Shown here: positions 10,897-29,780 of the stretch, one piece after another
How the letters are laid out: the number at the start of each line of letters is the position of its first letter
Numbering within the stretch: position 1 is the first letter of the stretch
Assembly (NCBI RefSeq): GCF_016862995.1
Contig: NZ_BOOA01000061.1
Span: 1-48,699, forward strand
Length of the DNA stretch: 48,699 nucleotides
Origin: Acrocarpospora phusangensis
GTDB taxonomy: Bacteria; Actinomycetota; Actinomycetes; Streptosporangiales; Streptosporangiaceae
Direction: 5' to 3'
Notes under the pieces: generated by a model
The model's input: the letters and a program-made list of their open reading frames with translations, nothing else
Databases searched by the model: none
Told to the model about the DNA's origin: nothing
Made by a program: the position numbers and the translations under genes

Positions 10897-13308
10897 TCAC
10901 TCCGCCCGCAGGACGGCGGCGACGCGGATGCGCGCGGCCGTCCTGGCGGGCCACGCCGACAGGCAGGCCGCGGCCAGCAGCGCCGCCGGGGCGATCAGCA
11001 GCAGCGTGCCTCCCGGCGTCGGCGGCGCGTAGAGCATCGGGGCGCTCTCGGCGACGCCGCGCCACAGGATGCGGCCCAGCGCCAGGCCCAGCGGCACCCC
11101 GGCGGCCAGGCCGACCAGGGCCAGCACCGCCGCCTGGGTCAGCACGATCCAGCGGGACTGCGCGGGCGTCATGCCCAGCGCCCGCAGCACCGCCACCTCG
11201 TGCCGCCGCCGCCGGACCCCGGCCGCCAGGGTGTGGCCGGTGGCGGCAAGCGCCAGCAGCGCCAGGAACCCGCCGAGCGCGGACGGGAGGGCGGAGATGC
11301 CCCTGATCTCGGCCAGCTGCCGGGGCTCGAAGAACGGCACGAAGCCGAGGTCGCCGTCCCCCGAGCCGCCTCCCACGGCGGCGCTCGCGACACGGCCGAG
11401 CCGGTCGGCCACGGCGGCGACGTCCGCGCCCGGGCGCAGGGCCACGAGGGCCAGGCCGACCTCGTAGGAGCGGGCCAGGCTGTGGTAGACGCGATCGGGG
11501 GCCAGCGCGCCCTCCGCGTAGTTGTTGGCCGGACCCTCCGGGACGAAGCCGACGCCGGAGACGGTGACGTCGCGGGTGCCCAGCTCGCCGGTGAGCGCGA
11601 TCCGGTCGCCGACGCCCACGCCCAGCGTGTCCGCCGTCCGCGCCGCCAGCAGGACCTCCCCGTCGGAGGCGGGCAGCCGTCCCGCCCTGAGCCGGCCGGC
11701 GGGGATCGGGTGGCGGCCGGGGGCGTAGCCGTACAGGGCGAAGGTGACGTCGCCGGAGACGACGGTGGAGACCGGGCGTTCCTCGATGCCCGCCACGTCC
11801 GGGTCGGCGGCCAGGGCGGGGATCAGCCGGTCGGGGGGCGCGCCCACGCCGTTGAAGCCGATGAAGACGAGGAGCTGGTGGGTCTGGCCGTACCGGGCCG
11901 GGTTGACGCCCGCGTCGTGGACGCCGGCGGCGAAGGTGAAGGCGGCCATCACGCCCAGCACGCCCGCCACGGTCCCGGTGAGGGCCGAGCCGACCGGGAG
12001 GGTGTCCACGCCCCTGCCGCGTTCCAGGGCGAAGCGCAGGCCGGTCTGGACGGGCACCGGCCAGCCCCGCCGCCCGGCGGCGACGGCGATCAGCGACGGG
12101 GTGCGGCGGCGCGGCGACCGCGCGGCGGCGAGCAGGATCCAGGCGTATCCGGCCGCGCTCGCCGCCAGTACGGCGGGCACGCCCAGCAGGCCGGGCAGGA
12201 GCACGGCCCAGTCGAGGTCGAAGCCGGGACGCGGCTCGTACGCGGCCGCCGCGCCGATCGGCATCCACGGCGACACCGCCGCGGCCCCCAGCACCCCCAG
12301 CGCGGACCCGGCCAGCGAGGCCAGCGCCGGGCCGAGGGCGGCGGCGGTCGCCGCCTGCCGCGGGGTGAGACCGGGCGCGCGCAGCGTGCGCAGCGCGGGG
12401 ACGGCCGCGCTGACCAGGCGGGCCGCGGACTGGCCGGCCAGCAGCGCGCCCGCCGACAGCACGGCCAGGCCGAGCGCCAGCAGCACCGCGGCCTCGTACG
12501 CGAGCAGCCGGTCCACCTGCCGGCGCACGCCCGCCAGATTCTCGATTTTGACGGCCGGGAGGCCGGTCAGCTCCGCGAGCCGGGCACGGAACGCCGGTAA
12601 CCCCGCTTCGCCGTCCGTCAGCCGGACGAGCCCGATCGTGAAGCCGCCGCGCCGGTCCGTGCCGATGAAATTTTCGCGATATTTCAGGAACAATCCGGGC
12701 GACGGGAGGATCGTTCCCAGGGCCCCGCTCGGGTCCACGAAGTACGGCGACCGGATCACTCCGACGATGCGCGCCGTGATCCTCGGCCCGTGCCGGAGCC
12801 CGGCCCCGTCCGAGTCCCCGACCAGGTCGGCCTCCTCGGGCGTGCTCAGCCGGATCACCACCGTGTCGCCGACGCCCTTGCCGTACTCGTCCAGGAAGCG
12901 GGGGAGCACGACCACCTCGTCGGGGCGGGACGGGTCGGGCAGCCGCCCGGCCAGCACCACCGGGCGCTCGACGGAGCGCCAGACCTCGGCGTCGGCCGGG
13001 GGAGCGGAGTCCCAGCCCAGCTGAACGCCCTCCACGGAGATGGCGGACACGGCCAGCGGCGCGACCGCCGCGACGCCCGGCAGGGCCCGGGCGCGGTCCC
13101 AGTCGAAGTCCGGGATCTGGCTCTGCACCAGCACGTCGGCGGGCAGGGCGCCGGCCCGCAGCCGTTCCTGCGCGGACGCGCCGCGCCGGGCGCCCGCGAC
13201 CGCGGCCAGGACGGTGGCCAGCGTGAGCGCGACGAGCACGGCCAGGGCGGCGTGCGCCCGCCACCTCGGGGCGACGGCGATCGCCAGCCAGGCACCGGAG
13301 AACCTCAT
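10897..13308 (-). CDS. FtsX-like ABC transporter permease, orphan
   Basis: An 803-aa membrane protein with two FtsX/MacB-type permease units. It has an N-terminal helix (~20-40), a large extracytoplasmic domain (~45-250), helices ~265-390, a second extracytoplasmic domain (~460-660) and three C-terminal helices. RRRRHEVAVLRALGMTPAQSRW near the C-terminus (split by me at residue RR) is the typical cytoplasmic loop that contacts the ATPase. I chose ATG 13308 because GAGGGG lies 5 nt upstream; the GTG at 13311 is too close to it. No ABC ATPase gene is adjacent, so the partner must be elsewhere. Such permeases export lipoproteins, lipids or peptides; the substrate here is unknown. Confidence 0.82.
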   Translation of the reverse strand: MRFSGAWLAIAVAPRWRAHAALAVLVALTLATVLAAVAGARRGASAQERLRAGALPADVLVQSQIPDFDWDRARALPGVAAVAPLAVSAISVEGVQLGWDSAPPADAEVWRSVERPVVLAGRLPDPSRPDEVVVLPRFLDEYGKGVGDTVVIRLSTPEEADLVGDSDGAGLRHGPRITARIVGVIRSPYFVDPSGALGTILPSPGLFLKYRENFIGTDRRGGFTIGLVRLTDGEAGLPAFRARLAELTGLPAVKIENLAGVRRQVDRLLAYEAAVLLALGLAVLSAGALLAGQSAARLVSAAVPALRTLRAPGLTPRQAATAAALGPALASLAGSALGVLGAAAVSPWMPIGAAAAYEPRPGFDLDWAVLLPGLLGVPAVLAASAAGYAWILLAAARSPRRRTPSLIAVAAGRRGWPVPVQTGLRFALERGRGVDTLPVGSALTGTVAGVLGVMAAFTFAAGVHDAGVNPARYGQTHQLLVFIGFNGVGAPPDRLIPALAADPDVAGIEERPVSTVVSGDVTFALYGYAPGRHPIPAGRLRAGRLPASDGEVLLAARTADTLGVGVGDRIALTGELGTRDVTVSGVGFVPEGPANNYAEGALAPDRVYHSLARSYEVGLALVALRPGADVAAVADRLGRVASAAVGGGSGDGDLGFVPFFEPRQLAEIRGISALPSALGGFLALLALAATGHTLAAGVRRRRHEVAVLRALGMTPAQSRWIVLTQAAVLALVGLAAGVPLGLALGRILWRGVAESAPMLYAPPTPGGTLLLIAPAALLAAACLSAWPARTAARIRVAAVLRAE

Positions 13309-13389
13309 CACGACCCCTCGGCCGACGACACGCGGATGGCCCGAATATCCGCCGGGGCGGCGCGGCGCGCCACCGGGCTAGCCCTCATG

Positions 13390-13464
13390 TTGACCGTCCA
13401 GCGGCCCCTGGTTAGCATCCGGATGCGCTCCCTCGAAATTTTCGCACGACAGTGAAAACTTTTC
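13390..13464 (+). promoter_or_regulatory. Promoter module with tandem palindromes before the condensation-domain gene
   Basis: TTGACC (13390-13395), a 17-bp spacer and TAGCAT (13413-13418) make a near-consensus promoter. The perfect 12-bp palindrome GCATCCGGATGC overlaps the end of the -10. Then come CGAAATTTTCG (centre 13439) and GAAAACTTTTC (centre 13459), 20 bp apart. The second centre is 33 bp before the start codon. The same arrangement precedes the GH115 gene at 26661. Confidence 0.65.
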
Positions 13465-13491
13465 GGTCCCGAGATCAGGAGGGGGCGACGG

Positions 13492-14772
13492 GTGTACGCC
13501 GACTTCGGTGGCGGCAGGTCCGGGCAGGCACCGCTGACCTGGGGGCAGCGAGGGATCTGGGACGCCATGGCGCGCAATCCGCCGGGCCATTTCAACATCG
13601 GGCGGGTGCTGATGGTGCCCCGGCGCGGCGGGGCCGAGGTCGCCGAGGTGGCCCGCGCGGTCGGGCTGCTGGCCAAGCGGCACGAGGCGCTGCGCACCCA
13701 GGTGGCGCTCGTCGAGGGCGAGCCCCGGCAGGTGGTGCGGGCGTCCGGGCGCATCCCGCTGACCGTCGTGGCGGCCGACCCCGCCGACGCCGCCGAGGCG
13801 GCCTGCGGGTTCCTGACGCGGTGGACGGCCGAGGCGTTCGACCACGAAGTGGAGTGGCCGCTGCGGGTGGGGGTGGTCTCCTCGGGCGGCCGGGTGCGCT
13901 GGATGGCCCTGGTCCTGTCCCATCTGGCGGCGGACGGGCACGCCACCGAGATCGTCCTGCGCGACCTGCGCCTGCTGCTGCGCCAGGACGCCATCGGCGG
14001 GCCGCCGCCCGCCCAGCCGCTGGACCTGGCCCGCGAGCAGCACGACGCCGGCGCGCGCCGTACCCGTGCCGCCATCGACTTCTGGACCGGGCAGTACGAG
14101 CGGGTCGCGCCCGTCATGTTCTCGCCCGTGCACACCGGCTCGGGGCCCCGGCACCGGCGGGTCCGGCTCACCTCCGAGCCGCTCGCCGCCGCCGCGGGGA
14201 AGGTCGCCGACCGGCACCGGGTCAGCTCCTCGACCGTCCTGCTGGCCGCCACGGCCGCGCTGGTCGGGGCGCGGACCGGCCACGCCTCGGTGGCCCTGTC
14301 CACCATCGTCGGCAACCGGTTCTCCGCCGGGCTGCGCGGCATGGTCACCACCCTCGACCAGCTCGGCCTGTTCGTGCTCGATCTGGCGCCCGGGGCCGGG
14401 CTCGACGAGCTGGTGCCGCGGGCCTGGCGGGCCGCGCTGGCCGCCTACCGGCACGCCTACTACGACCAGCCCGCCCTGGACGCGGCGCTGGCCGCGATGG
14501 GGCGGCGGCGCGGGGCTGAGCTGAACCCGTACTGCTGCTTCAACGACGTGCGGCAGCCCGGCGGTGGCTCCGCGGTGGCCCCGGACGCCTCGTCGCGGCT
14601 GGACTGGCTGCCCGACCCGGACGGCATCCGCTGCCGGTTCTGCCTCCTCGTCGGGGACGCCCCCGGCGCCGGGCTGGTCCTCCAGCTGACGGCGGACACG
14701 CGCTGCCTGACCTCCGACCAGATCGCGCGGTTCCTGCCGGAGCTGGAGAACCTCGTCCTGTCAGCTGTCTGA
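13492..14772 (+). CDS. Stand-alone condensation-domain protein (NRPS-associated)
   Basis: A 426-aa protein made of a single NRPS-type condensation domain of normal length. The active-site motif is SHLAADG (residues 143-149). The usual first His is Ser143, but the catalytic His144 and Asp148-Gly149 are kept, so amide- or ester-forming activity is plausible. Other landmarks are LTWGQRGIW near residue 15, RHEALRT near 63, and the late C-domain block MVTTLDQLGLFVLDL. The GTG start is supported by AGGAGGGG about 8 nt upstream. It converges with the NRPS gene, with only 12 bp between the two stops. It could act as a release or coupling enzyme for that module's product, or be an acyltransferase relative. 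Confidence 0.85.
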   Translation: MYADFGGGRSGQAPLTWGQRGIWDAMARNPPGHFNIGRVLMVPRRGGAEVAEVARAVGLLAKRHEALRTQVALVEGEPRQVVRASGRIPLTVVAADPADAAEAACGFLTRWTAEAFDHEVEWPLRVGVVSSGGRVRWMALVLSHLAADGHATEIVLRDLRLLLRQDAIGGPPPAQPLDLAREQHDAGARRTRAAIDFWTGQYERVAPVMFSPVHTGSGPRHRRVRLTSEPLAAAAGKVADRHRVSSSTVLLAATAALVGARTGHASVALSTIVGNRFSAGLRGMVTTLDQLGLFVLDLAPGAGLDELVPRAWRAALAAYRHAYYDQPALDAALAAMGRRRGAELNPYCCFNDVRQPGGGSAVAPDASSRLDWLPDPDGIRCRFCLLVGDAPGAGLVLQLTADTRCLTSDQIARFLPELENLVLSAV

Positions 14773-14784
14773 TCAGCCGTCTGA

Positions 14785-17700
14785 TCATTCGCCGGCGAGC
14801 AGGCGTTCCGCCTCCTCGTCGGTCAGGTCCGACAGCTCGGCGGCCAGCCCCTCCTCCAGGGCGACCGCCAGGTCGGCCACCGTACGGCGGGTGAACATGG
14901 TGAGGATCGGCAGCTCCACGCCCGTGATGGCGAGCAGCCGCGCGGCCACCCGTACGGCCAGCAGGGACTGGCCGCCGAGGCGGAAGAAGTCGTCGTCCAC
15001 GCCCACCCGCGGCACCCCGAGCACCTCCGTCCAGATGTCGGCGACCAGGGCCTCCGCGTCGGTCCTGGGCGGGGTGAACGCGGCGCGCTGCGCGACCGGG
15101 CTGGGCAGCGCGGCCCGGTCGACCTTGCCGTTCGGGGTCATCGGCAGGGTGGCGATCCGGATGAACCGGGCGGGCACCAGGTGCGCGGGCAGGGTCGCGG
15201 CCAGCGCCCGGGAGACCGCGCCCAGGCTGACCTCGCCCACCACGTACGCGATCAGGTTCTCCTCGTGCACGGCGGCCACCGCCTGCGTGACGCCGGGGAA
15301 CGCCTCGCAGGCCGCCTCCACCTCGCCCAGCTCGATCCGGTGGCCGCGCACCTTGACCTGGTTGTCGGTCCGGCCCAGGAACTCCAGCTCGCCCTCGCGC
15401 CGCCAGCGGACCATGTCGCCGGTGCGGTAGAGGCGGCCGCCGGGCTCGCCGTACGGGTCGGGGACGAAACGGCCGGCGGTGAGGGCCGGGCGGCCGAGGT
15501 AGCCGTGCGCCACCCCGGCGCCGCCGATGAGGAGCTCGCCGGGGACGCCGGTGCGGACCGGGTTGAGGCGTTCGTCCAGGACGTAGACCTGGGTGCCGCC
15601 GATGGGGCCGCCGATCCTGACCGCCGCCGGCTTGGCCGGGACCTCCCAGGAGGTGGACCAGATGGTGGTCTCGGTCGGGCCGTACACGTTGACCAGGCGG
15701 CCGGTGGAGGCGCGCAGGCGGCGGGCCAACTCCGCGCCCAGCGCCTCGCCGCCGACCAGGGCGGTCAGCTCGGGGTCGCGGTAGCCGGAGTCCAGCAGCA
15801 TGCGCCAGCCGGACGGCGTGGCCTGCACGTGGGTGACCGCCGCCTCCTTGATCAGTCGCGACTGGGCGAAGCCGTCCGCCGCCGCGGCCGCCCCGGCGAT
15901 CTCGACCCGGCCGCCGGTGACCAGCGGCAGGTAGAGCTCCAGGGCGGAGATGTCGAAGGAGAGCGAGGTGAGGCCGAGCCAGACGTGCTCGGGGGAGGCG
16001 CCGAGCAGGGCCTCCATCGAGGCCAGCAGGTTGGCCAGGGCGGCGTGCGGGACGGGCACGCCCTTCGGCTTGCCGGTCGAGCCCGAGGTGTAGAGCACGT
16101 AGGCCGTGTCCGAGCCCCGGACCGGCGCGCGGGCGAACCCCTCGCGGGCGGGCGGCGGGTCGTCGGCGAGCACCGTCGGCACCGGGTGGTCCGGCAGCGC
16201 CCTGACCGTCTCCGAGGTGGCCAGGACCAGGCTGGCGGCGCAGTCGTCCAGCACGAAGGACAAGCGGGCCGCGGGGTAGGCGGGGTCGATCGGCACGTAC
16301 GCGGCGCCGGTCCGCTGCACGGCCAGCAGCGCCACCAGGGACTCGGCGGTCCTGGGCAGGCAGACGGCCACCAGCTCGCCGGGGCGTACGGGCAGGCGGG
16401 CGGCCAGGTCGTCGGCGCGGCGGTCGAGCTCGGCGTAGCTGAGGCGGGTGTCGCCCGCGCTGACCGCGATCGCGTCCGGGCGTTCGGCCACCTGGCGCCG
16501 GAACCGGTCCGGGACCAGGTCGCGGACCGGCGGCGCGGTGCGGTTCCACGCGTGGATCAGGCGCTCGCGCTCCGCGCCGGCCGGGGCGGTCAGCTCGGAC
16601 AGGCGCAGGCCGGGGTCGGCGGCCAGGCGGGTCATGAGGGTCTCGAACTCGTGGGCGTACCCGCGGATGGTCTCCTCGTCGAACAGGCCAGTGTCGTAGA
16701 CGAGCAGCAGCTGCCAGACCCCGCTCAGGCCGAAGATGTCCGCCTTCAGGTCGTACGGCATGTGGTCGAACCCGGCGTCGGCGCGTTCGCAGCGCACGCC
16801 CTCCAGGACCAGGCCGGGGCCGCCGGTCTGGTGGTGCATGCCGAACATGGTCTGGAACAGCGGCGTGCGGCTCAGGTCGCGCTCGATGTCCAGCGCGGGC
16901 AGCAGCCGCTCGAAGGGCACCTTCTGGTGCCGGTATCCGGCCAGCAGCCGGGTGCGGGTGCGCCGCAGCACCTCGGTGAAGGCCGGGTCGCCGGACAGGT
17001 CGGCGCGGGACACGACCGTGTTGGAGAAGTAGCCGACCAGGCGTTCCAGCTCCATCCTGTCCCGCCCGGCCGTGGGGAAGCCCACGCAGAAGTCCGTCTG
17101 GCCGCTGCGCGCCGACAGCAGCACCTGGTAGACCGCCATCAGCGCCATGAACAGCGTGCAGCGCTCCCGCGCGGCCAGCGCCGCGAACGCGGTCGTCGCC
17201 TCGCCGGGCAGCGGGTGCAGCAGGTGCGCGCTCGCCGTCGCCGCCACCGCCGGGCGCGGCCGGTCCGTGGCCAGCTCCAGCGGCGCCGCCCCCGCCAGTT
17301 CGCCCGTCCAGTACGCCAGGGACTCGGGGCTCTCCTCCTCCGTCTTCACGACGTCGGAGTACCGGACGGGTAAGGGGTCGAGGGGGGCTTCGCCGTACAG
17401 GGCGGTGAGCTCGTCGGCGATGATGCCGATGGAGCGGCCGTCGCAGACGATGTGGTGCGTCACCACGCACAGGACGTGCTCGTCCGGGCCGCACTCGATC
17501 AGCCACGCCCGCACCAGCCGCCCGGCGGCCAGGTCGAACGGCCGCTCGATGAGCGCCGTCAGCAGCGGCCCCTCCGCCCCCTCGGCCGCCACCCGCGCCA
17601 GCTCGAACTCCCACGGCGGGTCGATCACCTGCACCGGCCCGCCGTCCCCGGCCGGGAACCTGGCGCGCAGCGCCTCGTGCCGGGCGACGACCCCGGTGAA

Positions 17701-17838
17701 CGCGCGGGCCAGCCGCGCCGCGTCCACCGGACCGGTGAGCCGGGTGGCCTGGGACAGATGGTAGGAGGCGTCCTGCGGGTCCACCTGCTGGAGGAACCAG
17801 ACACGCTCCTGGGCGGCCGACAGCGGCAGCTCGATCAT
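14785..17838 (-). CDS. Single-module nonribosomal peptide synthetase (C-A-PCP)
   Basis: A 1017-aa one-module NRPS. The condensation domain (~1-430) has an intact THHIVCDG motif (His128, His129, Asp133). The adenylation domain (~440-860) has YVLYTSGSTGKPKGV (A3), NVYGPTETT (A5), YRTGD (A7), GRTDNQVKVRGHRIELGEVE (A8) and PNGKVDR with the A10 Lys. The carrier domain has LGGQS with phosphopantetheine Ser958. Hand alignment to GrsA gives specificity residues D-I-L-Q-V-G-V-I-W, close to published glycine codes of the DILQLG type. There is no thioesterase, reductase or epimerase domain. A starter C domain implies an upstream acyl or peptidyl donor that is not encoded nearby. ATG 17838 has GGGAG upstream. 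Confidence 0.92.
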   Translation of the reverse strand: MIELPLSAAQERVWFLQQVDPQDASYHLSQATRLTGPVDAARLARAFTGVVARHEALRARFPAGDGGPVQVIDPPWEFELARVAAEGAEGPLLTALIERPFDLAAGRLVRAWLIECGPDEHVLCVVTHHIVCDGRSIGIIADELTALYGEAPLDPLPVRYSDVVKTEEESPESLAYWTGELAGAAPLELATDRPRPAVAATASAHLLHPLPGEATTAFAALAARERCTLFMALMAVYQVLLSARSGQTDFCVGFPTAGRDRMELERLVGYFSNTVVSRADLSGDPAFTEVLRRTRTRLLAGYRHQKVPFERLLPALDIERDLSRTPLFQTMFGMHHQTGGPGLVLEGVRCERADAGFDHMPYDLKADIFGLSGVWQLLLVYDTGLFDEETIRGYAHEFETLMTRLAADPGLRLSELTAPAGAERERLIHAWNRTAPPVRDLVPDRFRRQVAERPDAIAVSAGDTRLSYAELDRRADDLAARLPVRPGELVAVCLPRTAESLVALLAVQRTGAAYVPIDPAYPAARLSFVLDDCAASLVLATSETVRALPDHPVPTVLADDPPPAREGFARAPVRGSDTAYVLYTSGSTGKPKGVPVPHAALANLLASMEALLGASPEHVWLGLTSLSFDISALELYLPLVTGGRVEIAGAAAAADGFAQSRLIKEAAVTHVQATPSGWRMLLDSGYRDPELTALVGGEALGAELARRLRASTGRLVNVYGPTETTIWSTSWEVPAKPAAVRIGGPIGGTQVYVLDERLNPVRTGVPGELLIGGAGVAHGYLGRPALTAGRFVPDPYGEPGGRLYRTGDMVRWRREGELEFLGRTDNQVKVRGHRIELGEVEAACEAFPGVTQAVAAVHEENLIAYVVGEVSLGAVSRALAATLPAHLVPARFIRIATLPMTPNGKVDRAALPSPVAQRAAFTPPRTDAEALVADIWTEVLGVPRVGVDDDFFRLGGQSLLAVRVAARLLAITGVELPILTMFTRRTVADLAVALEEGLAAELSDLTDEEAERLLAGE

Positions 17839-17898
17839 TCGGGATGCTCCCTGGGAGTACGGCGAATGCGTTCGGACTCAACGGGAGCGTTCCCGCCG

Positions 17899-17927
17899 AC
17901 ACTATGATCGCCCCGATCCCTCGTCAA
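17899..17927 (-). promoter_or_regulatory. Promoter of the NRPS gene
   Basis: On the minus strand, TTGACG (17927-17922) and TAGTGT (17904-17899) are separated by 17 bp, a near-consensus housekeeping promoter. The distance to the NRPS ATG at 17838 leaves a leader of about 55 nt. No GAAANTTTC palindrome is present here, unlike at the condensation gene. Confidence 0.6.
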
Positions 17928-17957
17928 GCAACAGTGTGTCGGCCCCGCCGCCCTCCG

Positions 17958-19427
17958 TCAGTCGCCCTCGTAGAGCCTGTCGAGCCCGATGAGCTCCAGA
18001 TCCTCGCGGGCCGCGGCCGCCTCGGTGAGCGCGGGCATGAAACCCGCACCGCCGAACAGCAGGAGCCGGACGCCGTCCGCCACGCCTCCCTCGCGGCGCG
18101 CCAGCAGCCGCCGGACCCGCTCCAGGCGGTCGAGGTGCGCCTGCCCCATGACGTCGCCGCTCTTGGCCTCGCCGATCGCCAGCACCCGCTCCCGCCCGTC
18201 GTCGTCGCGCCCGAAGACCACCACGTCGAGTTCGTGGCCGGTCCGCCGCTCCGGATCCGGGATCGTGCCGGAGCCGACCCTGACGCGGAGCCCGCCCAGG
18301 GTGTCGCTCGCGGCGTGCCAGCGGGCCCAGGTCCTGGCCAGGTGCTCGAAGTGCGGCCCGAGCACCTTGCTCCGGAACCGGCTCAGGGACCGCTCCCAGA
18401 CGGCCGCGCCGTAGCCGGGGCGCTCCAGGTCCGTCCATTCCGGGCGCATGATGGCGTGGTAGAAGGCCAGCACCGGCTCCGTGATCCGGTACGCCGCGCG
18501 CTTGCCGTGGAAGACGTCCGGATCGCGGGCGATCATGCCGACGTCCTCCAGCACGGTCAGCGCGTGCCCGAGATCGGTGGACTTGCGGCCGAGGTAGGAG
18601 GCGATGCCGCCGCGCGCGTGGTTGCCGCCCGCGATGGCCGACAGCACTCCGTGGTAGAGCGCCGTGTCGCGAAGTTCGGGTTCCTCGGCGAGCAGGAACC
18701 TGGCCTCGCGGAACAGCGGGCGGCCGGGATTGAGCACGTTCCTGACCACCCACGGCCCGAAGTCGTCCCGGTCGGCGGGGACGTCGCCGAGCGTGAACTC
18801 CCGGCGGTAGGCGGGCGTGCCGCCGACGACGGCGTTCACCAGGAACGCCAGGCGCGGGTCCTCGATCTCCCAGAACTCCCGGGCCAGCCGGTAGTCCAGC
18901 GTCGGCACCACCAGCTCCAGGCTGGCCCGGCCGCGCAGTGGAGCCGTGCCCGCCAGCAGCCCGCCCATGAACGACATGGCCGAGCCGCACAGCAGCAGCC
19001 GCACCGGGCCGCCCTCCCGCTGCCCCTGCGGCCCCAGCGCCCGCTGGATGAGCGAGGGCAGCTGCGGCGACGCCTTGGACAGGTACGGGAACTCGTCCAG
19101 CACGACCGGCAGCGGCGCGCTTCTGGTCAGCGACATGAGCACCCGGACGGCCTCGTCCCAGCCGGGGAACCGGCGCGGCGCGGGCTCGCCCAGGTACCGG
19201 GCCAGGGCGGTGCCGAACTGGTGCAGCGACTCCGCCTCGGTCGCCTCGGTGGCGGCGAAGTAGAAGCCCCCGGTCGCCTGGCAGACCGCGTCCAGCAGGA
19301 ACGTCTTGCCCTGCCGCCGCCGCCCGGACACCACGCCGAGCGTCGCCTCCGCGCCGGGATAGCTCACGAATCGCGACAGCTCTGACCATTCGTAGTCGCG
19401 GTCGAACATCCCCGTGGGACGGTCCAT
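17958..19427 (-). CDS. AAA ATPase with DUF234-like, PD-(D/E)XK-like C-terminus
   Basis: A 489-aa ATP-binding protein of the COG1672/archaeal-ATPase type. It has Walker A GRRRQGKT (residues 35-42), Walker B LPVVLDEFPYL (~104-114) and a sensor region RLLLCGSAMSFMGG. A winged-helix segment follows in the middle (GGIASYLGRKSTDLGHALTV). Then comes a C-terminal domain with HELDVVVFGRD and AIGEAKSGD, the spacing of a PD-(D/E)XK nuclease core. Related proteins are widespread, often near mobile DNA, with no agreed function. ATG 19427 is chosen because longer frames cross the promoter repeats. It is a single-gene unit upstream of the NRPS. Confidence 0.78.
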   Translation of the reverse strand: MDRPTGMFDRDYEWSELSRFVSYPGAEATLGVVSGRRRQGKTFLLDAVCQATGGFYFAATEATEAESLHQFGTALARYLGEPAPRRFPGWDEAVRVLMSLTRSAPLPVVLDEFPYLSKASPQLPSLIQRALGPQGQREGGPVRLLLCGSAMSFMGGLLAGTAPLRGRASLELVVPTLDYRLAREFWEIEDPRLAFLVNAVVGGTPAYRREFTLGDVPADRDDFGPWVVRNVLNPGRPLFREARFLLAEEPELRDTALYHGVLSAIAGGNHARGGIASYLGRKSTDLGHALTVLEDVGMIARDPDVFHGKRAAYRITEPVLAFYHAIMRPEWTDLERPGYGAAVWERSLSRFRSKVLGPHFEHLARTWARWHAASDTLGGLRVRVGSGTIPDPERRTGHELDVVVFGRDDDGRERVLAIGEAKSGDVMGQAHLDRLERVRRLLARREGGVADGVRLLLFGGAGFMPALTEAAAAREDLELIGLDRLYEGD

Positions 19428-19437
19428 GGAACCCCGA

Positions 19438-19470
19438 TGATAAGTGAACCTATAATAAGTCAGCTTATCA
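19438..19470 (-). promoter_or_regulatory. AT-rich palindrome over the promoter of the AAA ATPase gene
   Basis: TGATAAG (19438-19444) and CTTATCA (19464-19470) are a perfect 7-bp inverted repeat enclosing 19 bp. Inside are two direct copies of ATAAGT(G/C)A 15 bp apart and, on the minus strand, TATTAT as a probable -10. The block starts 11 bp upstream of the ATPase start codon and is strikingly AT-rich for this genome. A dimeric regulator covering the -10 is likely. Confidence 0.5.
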
Positions 19471-19474
19471 TTGC

Positions 19475-22122: not shown

Positions 22123-22761
22123 TTGATCGAGAAGATCCTGCCGTCATGGGTGGCGAGCGCGGAGGCGTTCGACGATCCGGCGGAGGCCACGCTGTTCCCG
22201 GAGGAGGAGCGCTACATCGCGCCGGCCGTGGCGAAACGGCGGCGGGAGTTCACCACGGCGCGCCACTGCGCGCGGCGGGCCATGGCCAGGCTCGGCGTGC
22301 CGCCCGCGCCGATCGTGCCCGGCGAGCGCGGCGCGCCCGGCTGGCCGCCCGGGGTGGTGGGCGCGATGACGCACTGCGACGGCTACCGCGCCGCCGCGCT
22401 GTCCCTGGAGGCGGTCACGATCGGCATCGACGCCGAGCCCAACGCGCCGCTGCCGGACGGAGTGCTGGACGTCGTCGCGCTCCCCGCGGAGCGGTTGGCG
22501 CTGGGCGACATGCACAGGGACATGCATGGGGGCGTGCACTGGGACCGCCTGCTGTTCAGCGCCAAGGAGTCGGTCTACAAGGCGTGGTTCCCGCTGGCCC
22601 GCCGCTGGCTCGGCTTCGAGGAGGCCGAGATCGAACTCGACCCGGCGGGCACCTTCAGGGCGCGCCTCCTGGTGCCGGGGCCGCGCGGCCTGACCGGTTT
22701 CGACGGCCGCTGGCTGTGCGAGTCCGGCCTGGTGGTGACCGCGATCACGCTGCCGGACTAG
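22123..22761 (+). CDS. pptT: 4'-phosphopantetheinyl transferase (PptT/EntD type)
   Basis: A 212-aa cytoplasmic enzyme that transfers phosphopantetheine from CoA to the serine of carrier proteins in NRPS, PKS and fatty-acid systems. The Mg-binding and catalytic positions are present: GIDAEP with Asp103 and Glu105, and SAKESVYKAWF with Glu149 and Lys153. AKRRREFTTARHCAR near residue 37 and MTHCDGYRAA near 82 match mycobacterial PptT closely. The TTG start (22123) has GGAGGA 6 nt upstream; a downstream ATG would remove conserved sequence. Its likely local client is Ser958 of the NRPS. The 3' end overlaps the convergent metallophosphoesterase gene by 17 bp. Confidence 0.92.
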   Translation: MIEKILPSWVASAEAFDDPAEATLFPEEERYIAPAVAKRRREFTTARHCARRAMARLGVPPAPIVPGERGAPGWPPGVVGAMTHCDGYRAAALSLEAVTIGIDAEPNAPLPDGVLDVVALPAERLALGDMHRDMHGGVHWDRLLFSAKESVYKAWFPLARRWLGFEEAEIELDPAGTFRARLLVPGPRGLTGFDGRWLCESGLVVTAITLPD

Positions 22762-23578
22762 GCAGGATCTGCCGCAGCACGCCGGGCGGCGCCTCGCGCG
22801 GACCCCACTCGCGCGGGTAGCCGAGCGACACCTCCTCGAACCGCACGCCGTCGTACCAGGTGGTGCGGGGGATGTGCAGGTGGCCGTAGACGACGGCGGC
22901 CGCGTCGAAGCGCAGGTGCCAGTCGGCGGTGCGCTCGGTGCCGCACCAGATCGCGAACTCCGGGTAGCGCAGCACGAACGTCGGGTCCCTGACCAGCGGG
23001 TAGTGGTTGACCAGCACGGTCGGCAGGCCCGGCGGCCGGTCGGCCAGGCGGCGTTCGGTCTCGTCCAGGCGCGCCGCGCACCACGCGTCGATGCTCGGGT
23101 ACGGATCGGGGTGCAGCACCATCTCGTCCGTGCACACCACGCCCGCCGCGTGCGCCCGCCGCAGCGCCTCCTCCTTCGAGTCCACCCCCGGCATGCGGAA
23201 GGTGTAGTCGTAGAGCAGCAGCAGCGGCGCGACGGTGACCGGCCCGCCGGGCCCCTCCCAGATCGGGTACGGATCCTCCGGCGTCACCACCCCGAGCTCC
23301 CGGCACATCTTCACCAGCCGCTCGTACCGCTCCACGCCCCGCACCGGGTCGGGGTCGGACGGGTGGGTCCACAGGTCGTGGTTGCCCGGCGCCCACACCA
23401 CCTTCTCGAACCGGGACGCCAGCAGCCCGAGCGCCCACTCGACGCCGGCCACCTTCTCCGAGATGTCGCCGGGCACCAGCAGCCAGTCCGACGGCGTCCG
23501 GGGCCGGATCCGCTCCACGATCTCGCGGTTGTCCGCGTACCCGATGTGCAGGTCGCTGATGGCCAGCAGGAAACTCAT
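22745..23578 (-). CDS. pptH: Calcineurin-type metallophosphoesterase, PptH-like
   Basis: A 277-aa metallophosphoesterase with a complete di-metal set: SDLHIG (Asp9, His11), PGD (Asp38), GNHD (Asn66-His67-Asp68), NHYP and GHLH. In Mycobacterium tuberculosis the gene next to pptT (Rv2794c) is pptH (Rv2795c), which hydrolyses phosphopantetheine off carrier proteins. The sequences around DLHIGYADNREIVE, VWAPGNHDLWTHP and GVVTPEDPYP resemble that protein as I remember it. Here the pair is convergent and overlapping instead of co-directional. The PptH assignment is therefore family and context inference. The terminator of the GH44 gene lies just upstream of the ATG. Confidence 0.82.
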   Translation of the reverse strand: MSFLLAISDLHIGYADNREIVERIRPRTPSDWLLVPGDISEKVAGVEWALGLLASRFEKVVWAPGNHDLWTHPSDPDPVRGVERYERLVKMCRELGVVTPEDPYPIWEGPGGPVTVAPLLLLYDYTFRMPGVDSKEEALRRAHAAGVVCTDEMVLHPDPYPSIDAWCAARLDETERRLADRPPGLPTVLVNHYPLVRDPTFVLRYPEFAIWCGTERTADWHLRFDAAAVVYGHLHIPRTTWYDGVRFEEVSLGYPREWGPREAPPGVLRQILPSPAA

Positions 23579-26555: not shown

Positions 26556-26632
26556 TTGACCAGGGTAAGCGCCCGGTCTAACATCCCGGGATGCGTCGAT
26601 GGTGAAAGTTTCGTTTGACGTTGGAAACTTTC
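26556..26632 (+). promoter_or_regulatory. Promoter module with tandem GAAANTTTC palindromes before the GH115 gene
   Basis: TTGACC (26556-26561), a 17-bp spacer and TAACAT (26579-26584) form the promoter. The perfect 12-bp palindrome CATCCCGGGATG overlaps its downstream edge. GAAAGTTTC (26604-26612) and GAAACTTTC (26624-26632) follow with centres 20 bp apart. Together they also form a 9-bp inverted repeat with an 11-bp spacer. The second centre is 33 bp before the ATG. GAAANTTTC resembles the CGAANTTCG-type sites of xylan-responsive LacI-family repressors such as BxlR. Confidence 0.7.
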
Positions 26633-26660: not shown

Positions 26661-29600
26661 ATGGCAAGGCTCTCCGCAGGTTCCGTCATGTCCAGAATCC
26701 TGCTGGCCGTCGCGCTGGCGGTCGGGACGGGGGTGACGGCGATGCCCGCCGAGGCGGGCGCCCAGCATGACTCCTACATTGTCAGCAGTCCAGGAAACGG
26801 CAGGTTCCCGCTGGTCGCGGGGGGCAGGGCGGCCCCGCTGGTGGTCAGCGCCGACGACTATCCCGGTGTGGTCCGGGTGGTCGGCGACCTGCAGTCCGAC
26901 ATCCAGAAGGTGACCGGCGTGCGCCCGGCGGTGTCCAACCAGACGCCGACCCAGGGCGATGTGGTGATCATCGGCACGCTCGGGCGCAGCCCGCTCGTGG
27001 ACGGCCTGGTCGCCGCGGGCAAGCTGGACGTGTCGAGCATCGCCGGCAAGTGGGAGACCACGATCGAGCAGGTCGTGCGCAACCCGCTGCCGGGCGTGCG
27101 GAGCGCGTTCGTGATCGCCGGCAGCGACCAGCGCGGCACGATCTTCGGCGCGTACGACGTGTCCAAGGAGATCGGCGTCTCGCCCTGGTACTGGTGGGAC
27201 GACGTGCCCGTCAAGCGCCGCGGCTCGCTCTACGTCGAGCCCGGACGGCACACCCAGGGCACGCCCGCCGTGAAGTACCGCGGCTTCTTCATCAACGACG
27301 AGAACCCCGCGCTCGGCACCTGGGGCCCCGAGTTCTTCGGCCCCGGCCTCGCGCCCGGCTTCGAGGGCGGCTTCAACCGCCACCTGTTCGCCAAGGTCTT
27401 CGAGACCATGCTCCGGCTGAAGGCCAACTACCTGTGGCCGGCCGTCTGGGGCCGCGCCTTCGCCGAGGACGACCCCGCCAACCACGCCACCGCCAAGCTG
27501 TACGGCGTGATCATGGGCACCTCGCACGAGGCCCCCATGATGCGGGGCATCGAGGAGTGGAACCGGCACGCGGTGGCCGCCGTACGCGACTCGGCGGGCA
27601 ACATCGTCACCCCAGGCCGCGACCCGTACGGCGGGACCGGCGAGTGGAGCTTCCGCCGCAACCCCGACGCGATCAAGGCGTACTGGCGGGACGGCATCCG
27701 CCGCATGCGCGAGGAGGACTTCGAGGGCGTCGTCACGCTCGGCATGCGCGGCAACGGCGACGTGAGCCTGCCCGACGGCGACGGCATCGAGCTGATGCGG
27801 AGCATCATCGAGAGCGAGCGCGAGATCCTCGCCGCCGAGGCCGGCAAGCCCGTCACGGAGGTCCCGCAGGTCTGGACCCTCTACAAGGAGGTCCAGCGGT
27901 ACTGGGACCGCGGCCTGCGCGTGCCCGACGACGTGACCGTCGTCTTCACCGACGACAACTGGGGCAACATGCGCAAGCTGCCCGACCAGAGCATGCCCGC
28001 CCGGGCCGGCGGCTACGGCCTCTACTACCACTACGACTACGTCGGCGGCGGCCGCAACTACAAGTGGGTGGACACCAACCAGCTGCCCAACATCTGGGAG
28101 CAGCTCAACCTCTCCTACAAGTACGGCGTGGACCGGCTCTGGGTGGTCAACGTCGGCGACATGAAGAACGAGGAACTCCCGCTCCAGTTCTTCCTCGACT
28201 ACGCGTGGAACCCGGACAGGTGGCCGCTGGAGAAGATCTCCGAGTGGGAGGAGCAGTACGCGGCCCAGAACTTCGGCACGGACAAGGCCGAGGCCATCGC
28301 CGAGGTCCTGCACGACTACGCGGCGCTGCAGTCCCGGCGCAAGCCCGAGCTGCTCAACCGCCTGATCAGCCTGGACCCGGCCAAGGACCTGTCCACCGAC
28401 TCCAGCGCGGTGCTCTACGACGACCAGGCCAACCCCTACAGCCTGACCAACTACCGCGAGATGGAACTGGTGACCGCCGAGTGGGCGGCCCTGTCGTCGC
28501 GGGCCGAGAAGATCGGCCGCCAGCTCGGCTCCGCCGCCCAGGACGCCTACTTCCAGCTCGTGCTCTACCAGGTCAAGGCCACCGCCAACCTGTACGCGCT
28601 GCGCCTGGCCGAGTTCGACAACATCCGCTACGCCGCGCAGGGCCGGGCCCTCACCAACGACCTGGCCGCGCTCGCCGAAGCCAGGTTCGCCGACGACCAG
28701 GCCATGAACCACCACTACAACACCGCGCTGGCGGGCGGCAAGTGGAAGAACTGGCAGCTCCAGCCCAAGATCGGCTACGGCGACATCGCCAGGTACGGCC
28801 CGAACGCGCCCTGGCAGCAGCCCGAGCTGAACAACGTGGCCCTGCCCGACGAGATCTTCCCCGCGGTCAAGCGCATCACGCTGCCGGCCGCGGCCGAGAT
28901 GGGCGTGGCCCTGGACGGCTCGGACGCCTGGTGGCCGAACTCCACGGCGCCCGCGGTGCTGCCGGCGTTCAGCCCGTACCAGAGCCAGCCGGCGCAGTAC
29001 ATCGAGGTGTTCAACCGGGGCACGACGGCCTTCGACTACCAGATCAAGCCGTCGGTCTCCTGGCTGAAGGCCGAGCCCAGCCGGGGCCGGCTGGACAAGC
29101 AGGTCCGCAGCACCCTGCGGGTCGACTGGTCCAAGGCGCCCAAGGGCACGACCAACGTGCCGATCACCGTGACCGGGCCCGGCGGGTCCAGCGTGGTAGT
29201 GAAGGCCGTAGTGCAGAAGCCGAACACCGGGCAGGTGAAGGGCTTCGTCGAGGCCAACGGGTACGTGTCGATGGAGGCGGACCAGTACTCCAGGGCCGTC
29301 TCCTCCGGTGGGGTGTCGTGGAAGCGCATCCCGGGCATCGGCCGTACCGGATCGGGCCTGACGCCGATCCCGGTGACGGCGGCGCGCCAGACGCCGGGCG
29401 GTGACAGCCCGCGGCTGGAGTACAAGATGCACCTGTTCACCACGGGTCCGGTGAAGGTGACGGCCTACCTGTCGCCGCGCAACAACGTGCTCGCCACCGA
29501 GGGCCTCAAGTACGCCGTCTCGATCGACGACGGAGCGCCCCAGGTGGTGGACATCATCGCGGCCACCGGTTCGGACGACACCCGGATGAACCGGCAGTGG

Positions 29601-29780
29601 GAGCGCAACACCTCCGACAACGTCAACCGGACGACCACCACGCACACCGTCACCCAGGCGGGGGCGCACACGCTCAAGTTCTGGATGGTGGATCCGACGG
29701 TGATCGTGCAGAAGATCGTCGTCGACACCGGCGGGGTGCTGACCAGCTACCTCGGCCCGCCGCAGAGCACGCGGAGCTAA
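26661..29780 (+). CDS. Secreted GH115 xylan alpha-glucuronidase
   Basis: A 1039-aa secreted enzyme of family GH115, which removes (4-O-methyl)glucuronic acid side chains from xylan. A Sec signal (residues ~1-32, LLAVALAVGTGVTAMPAEAGA split here by me after the first 20) precedes the family's N-terminal domain (FPLVAGGRAAPLVVSADDY). The catalytic barrel follows (VKYRGFFINDENPALGTW, RLKANYLWPAVWGRAF, GVIMGTSHEAPM, VTLGMRGNGD, VVFTDDNWGNMR, YYHYDYVGGGRNYKW). C-terminal beta-domains carry YIEVFNRG and VSMEADQYSRAV. The length matches full-size GH115. GGAGG lies 6-10 nt upstream of the ATG. With GH44 and the sugar importer it suggests plant cell-wall use. Confidence 0.92.
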   Translation: MARLSAGSVMSRILLAVALAVGTGVTAMPAEAGAQHDSYIVSSPGNGRFPLVAGGRAAPLVVSADDYPGVVRVVGDLQSDIQKVTGVRPAVSNQTPTQGDVVIIGTLGRSPLVDGLVAAGKLDVSSIAGKWETTIEQVVRNPLPGVRSAFVIAGSDQRGTIFGAYDVSKEIGVSPWYWWDDVPVKRRGSLYVEPGRHTQGTPAVKYRGFFINDENPALGTWGPEFFGPGLAPGFEGGFNRHLFAKVFETMLRLKANYLWPAVWGRAFAEDDPANHATAKLYGVIMGTSHEAPMMRGIEEWNRHAVAAVRDSAGNIVTPGRDPYGGTGEWSFRRNPDAIKAYWRDGIRRMREEDFEGVVTLGMRGNGDVSLPDGDGIELMRSIIESEREILAAEAGKPVTEVPQVWTLYKEVQRYWDRGLRVPDDVTVVFTDDNWGNMRKLPDQSMPARAGGYGLYYHYDYVGGGRNYKWVDTNQLPNIWEQLNLSYKYGVDRLWVVNVGDMKNEELPLQFFLDYAWNPDRWPLEKISEWEEQYAAQNFGTDKAEAIAEVLHDYAALQSRRKPELLNRLISLDPAKDLSTDSSAVLYDDQANPYSLTNYREMELVTAEWAALSSRAEKIGRQLGSAAQDAYFQLVLYQVKATANLYALRLAEFDNIRYAAQGRALTNDLAALAEARFADDQAMNHHYNTALAGGKWKNWQLQPKIGYGDIARYGPNAPWQQPELNNVALPDEIFPAVKRITLPAAAEMGVALDGSDAWWPNSTAPAVLPAFSPYQSQPAQYIEVFNRGTTAFDYQIKPSVSWLKAEPSRGRLDKQVRSTLRVDWSKAPKGTTNVPITVTGPGGSSVVVKAVVQKPNTGQVKGFVEANGYVSMEADQYSRAVSSGGVSWKRIPGIGRTGSGLTPIPVTAARQTPGGDSPRLEYKMHLFTTGPVKVTAYLSPRNNVLATEGLKYAVSIDDGAPQVVDIIAATGSDDTRMNRQWERNTSDNVNRTTTTHTVTQAGAHTLKFWMVDPTVIVQKIVVDTGGVLTSYLGPPQSTRS

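What the first reader, a model, noticed from the sequence alone, without database searches (positions are those of the whole stretch)
13390..13492. Condensation-domain gene and GH115 gene share one promoter/operator module
Upstream of 13492: TTGACC-N17-TAGCAT, palindrome GCATCCGGATGC, then GAAATTTTC and GAAAACTTTTC with centres 20 bp apart. Upstream of 26661: TTGACC-N17-TAACAT, palindrome CATCCCGGGATG, then GAAAGTTTC and GAAACTTTC with centres 20 bp apart. In both, the second centre is exactly 33 bp before the start codon. Such matching geometry before a stand-alone NRPS condensation domain and a xylan glucuronidase is unlikely by chance. It implies a common regulator, possibly a LacI-type repressor of the xylan-responsive kind, or a copied promoter cassette. 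It would tie a small nonribosomal peptide pathway to plant-polymer sensing.
Basis: partly seen in the sequence, partly recalled or inferred. Interest (0 to 1): 0.85.

Follow-up and report, generated by a model that had tools for sequence, protein, structure and literature searches.

The report
Peptide-synthesis gene under xylan-type operator
In a group of soil bacteria, a gene for joining building blocks of a small peptide carries the same kind of on/off switch as genes for digesting the plant polymer xylan, which suggests that the bacteria may make this unknown peptide when they sense plant material.

Summary
Tandem GAAANTTTC-type boxes, centres 20 bp apart, follow TTGACC-N17-TARCAT promoters at 13492 (stand-alone NRPS condensation gene) and 26661 (GH115); shuffles give a mean of 0.00. 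The layout recurs at the condensation gene in 5 of 5 genomes held of the genus (Acrocarpospora) and at GH115 in the 4 with a whole gene; an extended form of the module has no other exact match in those genomes. Boxes, -35/-10 and a start-site block stay fixed while the bases between drift. The same box lies beside GH10, GH30, GH5, sugar-transport and LacI genes and resembles the published BxlR xylobiose-repressor site (passages). So the condensation gene most likely belongs to a BxlR-like xylan regulon. Two stated details fail: the 33-bp distance to the start codon and the perfect palindrome are not conserved. Regulator, inducer and peptide are inferred. Precedent: CebR at thaxtomin synthetase genes. 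Extra: the condensation gene faces its C-A-T partner, whereas 9 of 9 paralogous pairs picked are co-directional; and a conserved promoter-box-hairpin unit without a gene is a candidate small RNA.

The parts
13390..13395 (+). -35 TTGACC of the condensation-gene promoter
   Evidence: 6/6 columns invariant in 5 genomes
13413..13418 (+). -10 TAGCAT, spacer 17
   Evidence: 5/6 invariant; spacer 18 in G106
13416..13427 (+). CATCCGGATGCG block over the presumed transcription start, shared with the GH115 promoter
   Evidence: exact pattern only at these two genes in 5 genomes; 14/16 columns between -10 and box 1 invariant
13435..13443 (+). operator box 1, GAAATTTTC
   Evidence: GAAANTTTCG 9/10 invariant
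13454..13464 (+). operator box 2, GAAAACTTTTC, centre 20 bp after box 1
   Evidence: 9/11 invariant, 0/10 between the boxes
13492..14772 (+). stand-alone NRPS condensation-domain gene (426 aa, GTG start)
   Evidence: Pfam PF00668 E 3.1e-20; orthologs 72-82% in the 4 other genomes of the genus; PDB hits to C domains
14785..17838 (-). convergent NRPS module C-A-T (1017 aa), presumed partner
   Evidence: beside the condensation gene in 5/5 genomes
26556..26561 (+). -35 TTGACC of GH115 promoter
26579..26584 (+). -10 TAACAT of GH115 promoter
26582..26595 (+). CATCCCGGGATGCG block
26604..26612 (+). operator box 1, GAAAGTTTC
   Evidence: 10/10 with the following G
26624..26632 (+). operator box 2, GAAACTTTC
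   Evidence: 9/9
26661..29780 (+). GH115 (xylan alpha-glucuronidase family) gene, 1039 aa
   Evidence: Pfam PF15979 E 1.6e-134 and PF17829; orthologs 91-92% in 3 genomes, a piece in G106

Best explanation
The two boxes are operators of a xylan-oligosaccharide repressor of the LacI family (BxlR-like), and the stand-alone condensation gene is a member of that regulon in this genus. SHOWN from sequence: a promoter-like pair of hexamers, then two GAAANTTTC-type palindromes about two helical turns apart before the start codon, kept in all five genus genomes and shared with GH115 and other xylan genes. INFERRED: two repressor dimers bind side by side downstream of the transcription start and block RNA polymerase; imported xylobiose or a related oligosaccharide releases them, so that condensation enzyme and xylan enzymes appear together. 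The most likely regulator is the LacI protein at G000:C45:54594-55637; the LacI at C79:33322-34317 is a second candidate. The condensation enzyme probably works in trans with the adjacent, oppositely transcribed C-A-T synthetase, so a sugar signal would gate completion of a small peptide. The promoter was copied from, or converged with, that of GH115 about 13 kb away.
For: Tandem pattern at up to 3 mismatches in the own genome: 48 forward/46 reverse against 6/5 for the reversed control. At up to 1 mismatch: 6, 5, 7, 7, 8 forward matches in the 5 genus genomes, control 0/0 in four and 1/1 in G127. Neighbours: GH115, GH30, GH5|LacI, sugar-binding protein, GSDH-CBM2, GH10. Footprints: boxes and promoter fixed, 0/10 and 1/10 invariant columns between the boxes. 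In G106 only a piece of GH115 is found and the usual upstream neighbour is not beside the condensation gene, yet its boxes stay. Outside the genus the exact tandem box precedes GH115 in G109, G033 and G012 (80, 81 and 68% to the window GH115). C45 LacI: ortholog in each of 11 genomes searched (81-98% in the ten others), tandem box upstream at 1 mismatch in 9 and at 2 in G012 and G051. Literature passages: CGAAACTTTCG / CGAANNTTTCG as BxlR site at xylanase promoters.
Against: No binding, expression or inducer data. Box 2 at the condensation gene is a variant with four A's before the centre in 5 of 5 genomes, and box 1 is GAAATTTTC in 4 of 5. The nearest outside ortholog (G051, 58%) and 24 of 24 more distant condensation genes have no box, so the link is limited to one genus. 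The C-A-T partner has no box. BxlR itself could not be compared by sequence. Other LacI paralogs also have a box upstream: G079:C17:62817 and G106:C35:102805 (1 mismatch, coordinates), C79 in the own genome (2 mismatches), so the cognate regulator is uncertain. C26 and C24 are good matches without a xylan gene; 9 of 12 exact tandem sites read outside the genus are not at GH115 and have mixed or unclear neighbours.
Confidence: 0.7

Rival explanations
1. The boxes at the condensation gene are bound by a different regulator (a LacI paralog with another sugar, or an unrelated factor with a similar site) and signal something other than xylan.
For: 4 to 7 LacI paralogs per genus genome at E 1e-60 or better, some with a box of their own; variant boxes at the condensation gene.
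Against: G106 carries the ordinary GAAAGTTTC as box 1; the extended module is shared with GH115 only; 0 of 9 paralogous LacI loci fetched has a tandem box at 2 mismatches or fewer upstream, though others not fetched do.
Confidence: 0.22
2. The promoter of the condensation gene is a copied cassette from GH115 that is kept mainly for promoter strength; the operators are passengers.
For: The extended block occurs only at these two genes; local alignment of the two promoters scores above all of 1000 mononucleotide shuffles.
Against: Across orthologs 9/10 and 9/11 box columns are invariant while 0/10 between the boxes are: passengers would drift.
Confidence: 0.05
3. The leader acts as RNA: the GCUCCCUC after the start pairs with the Shine-Dalgarno region and the conservation is structural.
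For: Such pairing appears in the minimum-energy folds of the condensation-gene leaders of G000, G127, G079 and G027, and in a shorter form in G106.
Against: z-scores only -2.23, -0.78, -1.97, -0.75, -1.98; four GH115 leaders -1.01 to +0.34; the same boxes lie in other positions at other genes. No Rfam match in the five loci searched.
Confidence: 0.03
4. The boxes control the divergent FtsX/MacB-type permease (10897-13311, minus), not the condensation gene.
For: It is divergent and close.
Against: Boxes lie between promoter and condensation gene on the plus strand; in G106 the first permease-like frame is over 4 kb away and the boxes stay.
Confidence: 0.02
5. Chance.
For: None found.
Confidence: 0.01

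Closest known systems
BxlR regulon of Streptomyces (xylobiose-responsive LacI repressor)
   Same: Palindrome CGAAACTTTCG / CGAANNTTTCG at xylanase promoters and upstream of the bxlR gene (passages of PMC4743123 and PMC12772271)
   Different: Here boxes come as pairs 20 bp apart, targets include GH115 and GH30, and a condensation-domain gene is a target
CebR control of thaxtomin synthesis in Streptomyces scabies
   Same: A LacI repressor of plant-polymer use also binds at NRPS genes txtA, txtB and activator txtR (passages of PMC5332605 and PMC4890002)
   Different: CebR site TGGGAGCGCTCCCA and cello-oligosaccharides; here a xylan-type box and only a stand-alone condensation gene; no CebR-type site was looked for in this genome
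NRPS condensation-domain proteins
   Same: PF00668; second His and DG of the HHxxxDG motif kept (SHLAADG); PDB C-domain hits
   Different: First His is Ser in 6 of 6 orthologs L032-L037 and Cys in the 24 more distant relatives read; convergent with its C-A-T partner

Membership tests
BxlR-type xylan regulon | Operator palindrome CGAANNTTTCG-like near the promoter | tested here: met
   Boxes CGAAATTTTCG and GAAAACTTTTC at 13434-13464; 5/5 genomes; published form
BxlR-type xylan regulon | Same box at xylanases, a sugar-transport gene and a lacI gene of the same genome | tested here: met
   GH115, GH30, GH10, sugar-binding protein, GH5|LacI, at 0 to 2 mismatches
BxlR-type xylan regulon | Regulator orthologous to BxlR | not testable with these tools
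   BxlR sequence not at hand; LacI candidates found by box and position only
BxlR-type xylan regulon | Binding in vitro and release by xylobiose; induction on xylan | not testable with these tools
   needs bench work
NRPS condensation domain | PF00668 match above cut-off and HHxxxDG motif | tested here: inconclusive
   72.8 bits against cut-off 30.6; motif SHLAADG, first His replaced; predicted structure of low confidence, mean pLDDT 42.5, not used
CebR/thaxtomin-like control | Carbohydrate-use repressor site at an NRPS pathway gene | tested here: inconclusive
   site present by sequence, repressor and pathway not shown; operator and sugar class differ from CebR, so at most it works like it

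The most novel reading that the evidence does not exclude
A xylan-oligosaccharide repressor gates a two-part nonribosomal peptide synthetase by controlling only its free-standing condensation enzyme, which was turned round relative to its C-A-T partner and given the GH115 promoter. The same repressor also controls a conserved small RNA. The bacterium would thus couple plant-polymer sensing to a peptide and to RNA-based regulation.
Probability: 0.3. Interest if true: 0.8.

Novelty: new variant of a known kind. Interest (0 to 1): 0.6.

Why it matters
If true, it gives a simple candidate inducer (xylan or xylobiose) for an unknown peptide pathway in a little-studied actinomycete genus, and a second case beside CebR-thaxtomin in which a polysaccharide repressor has taken over a peptide-synthesis gene. 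The switch can be tested directly by growth on xylan, and the five genomes already give natural variants of the operator.

Tried and rejected
Palindromes GCATCCGGATGC / CATCCCGGGATG as a separate operator: perfect form in 2 of 5 and 1 of 4 promoters only, left arm is the -10; not excluded in degenerate form.

Exact 33-bp geometry: not conserved.

RNA leader: weak z-scores.

Spacing scan of perfect box pairs at 1-30 bp gap: 9 distinct places in 5 genomes; 4 are the GH115 pairs with 20-bp centres, the other 5 have centres 30-37 bp apart. By coordinates one of these (G027:C44:122056) lies about 100 bp before a LacI paralog; not followed.

Family sample of 150 genomes with the exact tandem: 16 with a match, 5 of them the genus. 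Outside it there are 13 places; I read 12. Three are GH115; the other 9 have mixed or unclear neighbours by eye.

Own-genome matches whose best is 2 mismatches: 9 distinct places. C80 and C113 are GH10, C79 is LacI|GH10-CBM2, C1 is tautomerase|epimerase near a sugar-transport and LacI cluster; C15, C52, C55, C63 and C100 show no clear xylan gene (by eye). The 3-mismatch matches were not sorted, except one between a sugar-binding protein and a LacI gene (C1:50275).

A first reading took the first 1500 bases as upstream for all relatives; strands were put right.

The structure prediction of the condensation protein (5-sequence alignment) came back with mean pLDDT 42.5 and was not used; no fold search was made.

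Paper searches for a published link between xylan control and such a gene: nothing of the kind in the listings; only this open-access library was searched.

Full report
WHAT WAS CLAIMED.

OBSERVATION. All stated elements are present at the stated places. The tandem pattern GAAANTTTC-N12-AAANTTT at up to 2 mismatches is found in the 48.7-kb window only at these two sites; 100 shuffles gave a mean of 0.00. Exact TTGACC-N17-TANCAT occurs only at these two sites. By composition 0.0002 to 0.007 exact tandem matches are expected in the whole genome. The gene at 13492 is PF00668 (E 3.1e-20), the gene at 26661 is GH115 (E 1.6e-134).

GENOME-WIDE. In the own genome (9.1 Mb) the pattern at up to 3 mismatches gives 48 forward and 46 reverse matches against 6 and 5 for the reversed control (near-palindromic sites count on both strands). 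At up to 1 mismatch there are 9 distinct places: the two of the window; C43 (before a secreted GSDH-CBM2 protein); three in a xylan cluster on C45 (between a GH5 and a LacI gene; before a sugar-binding protein; before GH30, with GH10 and GH43 genes in the cluster); C82 (start of a GH10 cut by the contig end; 55% over 47 aa to another GH10); C26 (before a BTAD-type regulator gene); and C24 (no same-strand gene; see noticed items). Nine further places have 2 mismatches at best: two GH10 genes (C80, C113), a LacI gene facing a GH10-CBM2 (C79), a tautomerase gene near a sugar-transport and LacI cluster (C1), and five with no clear xylan gene by eye. So 6 of the 8 places at 1 mismatch or less other than the condensation gene are beside plant-polysaccharide genes.

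CONSERVATION. Named matches with the same coordinates as G127, G079 and G027 are Acrocarpospora pleiomorpha, macrocephala and corrugata, so the window belongs to that genus as grouped here. Five genomes of the genus are held and all 5 have the condensation gene. All 5 have -35, -10, both boxes and the 20-bp centre spacing. Invariant columns: -35 6/6, spacer 6/17, -10 5/6, between -10 and box 1 14/16, box 1 9/10, between boxes 0/10, box 2 9/11, upstream 41/128, box 2 to start 8/26. For GH115 in 4 genomes (in the fifth, G106, only a piece was found) the same items are -35 6/6, spacer 9/17, -10 6/6, between -10 and box 1 16/19, box 1 10/10, between boxes 1/10, box 2 9/9, upstream 92/125 (partly coding), box 2 to start 17/28. 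The distance to the start codon varies (33, 34, 35, 43, 19; and 33, 30, 32, 32), whereas -10 to box 1 is fixed at 26 and at 29 bp. In G106 the usual upstream neighbour is not beside the gene, yet the boxes are kept. The 58% ortholog in another genus (G051) and 24 of 24 more distant condensation genes have no box at 2 mismatches or fewer within 500 bp.

A SHARED MODULE. The pattern CATCC-N1-5-TGCG-N3-14-GAAANTTTC, taken from the two promoters, matches only the condensation gene (5 of 5 genomes) and GH115 (4 of 5) and nothing else in these genomes; control 0. The pattern was made after seeing the two promoters, so the informative part is its absence elsewhere. Local alignment of the two promoters scores above all of 1000 mononucleotide shuffles; the block between -10 and box 1 alone is reached by 35 of 5000. 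A copy and convergence cannot be told apart.

THE LIKELY REGULATOR. The LacI gene at G000:C45:54594-55637 has an ortholog in each of the 11 genomes that I chose for the search (81-98% in the ten others). A tandem box lies upstream in 9 at 1 mismatch and in 2 (G012, G051) at 2 mismatches; 0 of 9 fetched LacI paralogs have one. But paralogs that were not fetched do: by coordinates G079:C17:62817 and G106:C35:102805 (1 mismatch) and C79 in the own genome (2 mismatches), so C79-type LacI is a second candidate. Outside the genus the exact tandem box stands before GH115 in G109, G033 and G012 (80, 81 and 68% identity). Published: CGAAACTTTCG is given as the BxlR site and as present at xylan genes of S. 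lividans (PMC4743123, passages); CGAANNTTTCG is shared by two xylan-induced promoters of Streptomyces sp. SirexAA-E and the region upstream of its BxlR homolog, which was found in a promoter pull-down (PMC12772271, passages). I could not compare with BxlR itself.

THE PEPTIDE SIDE. The condensation gene faces a 1017-aa C-A-T synthetase (14785-17838, minus) 12 bp beyond its stop codon; the pair is on opposite strands in 5 of 5 genomes (matched stretches 12-41 bp apart). Nine paralogous pairs that I picked from the capped lists as lying within 1.3 kb are all on the same strand. So the two proteins look like partners, and in the copy with the xylan box one of them has been turned round. Only the condensation gene has the box. 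The A-domain signature read by eye resembles the glycine code from memory. The condensation protein keeps the second His and the DG of HHxxxDG; the first His is Ser. Closest solved relatives are C domains (6oyf, E 5.6e-12). The predicted structure was of low confidence (mean pLDDT 42.5) and says nothing.

MECHANISM. Two palindromes centred 20 bp apart lie roughly 15 and 35 bases after the expected transcription start (counted from the -10; inferred). This fits two repressor dimers on one face of the DNA acting as a road-block, released by a xylan oligosaccharide. Binding, inducer and expression remain to be tested. The nearest precedent for the logic is CebR acting on txtA, txtB and txtR of the thaxtomin cluster (PMC5332605, PMC4890002, passages).

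VERDICT. Real, conserved and functional-looking; most likely a new target of a known kind of xylan regulon, in one genus. The link to a peptide pathway is plausible but rests on one gene.

Noticed in passing
G000:C24:13605-13744 (L099:4606-4745; L166-L170): A promoter, the tandem boxes and a strong hairpin lie between two convergent genes with no same-strand gene called after them. The unit is present in 5 of 5 genus genomes (83-92%; outside it 12 of 200 genomes match the hairpin part only). From inside box 2 through the hairpin 60 positions have one variable column, besides a one-base insertion in 2 of 5; fold z -4.28; no Rfam match. Candidate small RNA under the xylan repressor; a bidirectional terminator would explain the hairpin but not promoter and boxes.
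   Followed up: partly
window 13492-17838 and paralogous pairs: Stand-alone condensation gene plus C-A-T synthetase is a recurring pair; same strand in 9 of 9 paralogous pairs picked, opposite strand in 5 of 5 copies of the window pair.
   Followed up: partly
window 17839-19474: In G027 a 1004-aa DUF11 gene stands between the synthetase and the next gene (L105:10171-13185); tblastn finds no trace of it in the window.
   Followed up: partly
window 12667-12675: A further GAAATTTTC lies inside the FtsX-type permease gene; the same 9-mer is at the like place in 4 of 5 genus loci. Probably coding constraint.
   Followed up: no
G000:C26:52381-52408: A 1-mismatch tandem box lies 17 bp before a BTAD-type (SARP-like) regulator gene next to an ABC exporter gene.
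   Followed up: no
G106:C46:112711-113343: GH115 was found only as a piece matching residues 660-871 at E 1e-80 or better.
   Followed up: no
window 22150-22761 and 22745-23578: PptT/Npt-like phosphopantetheinyl transferase overlapping a metallophosphoesterase gene; recalled as a usual housekeeping pair, so not proof of a dedicated peptide cluster.
   Followed up: no
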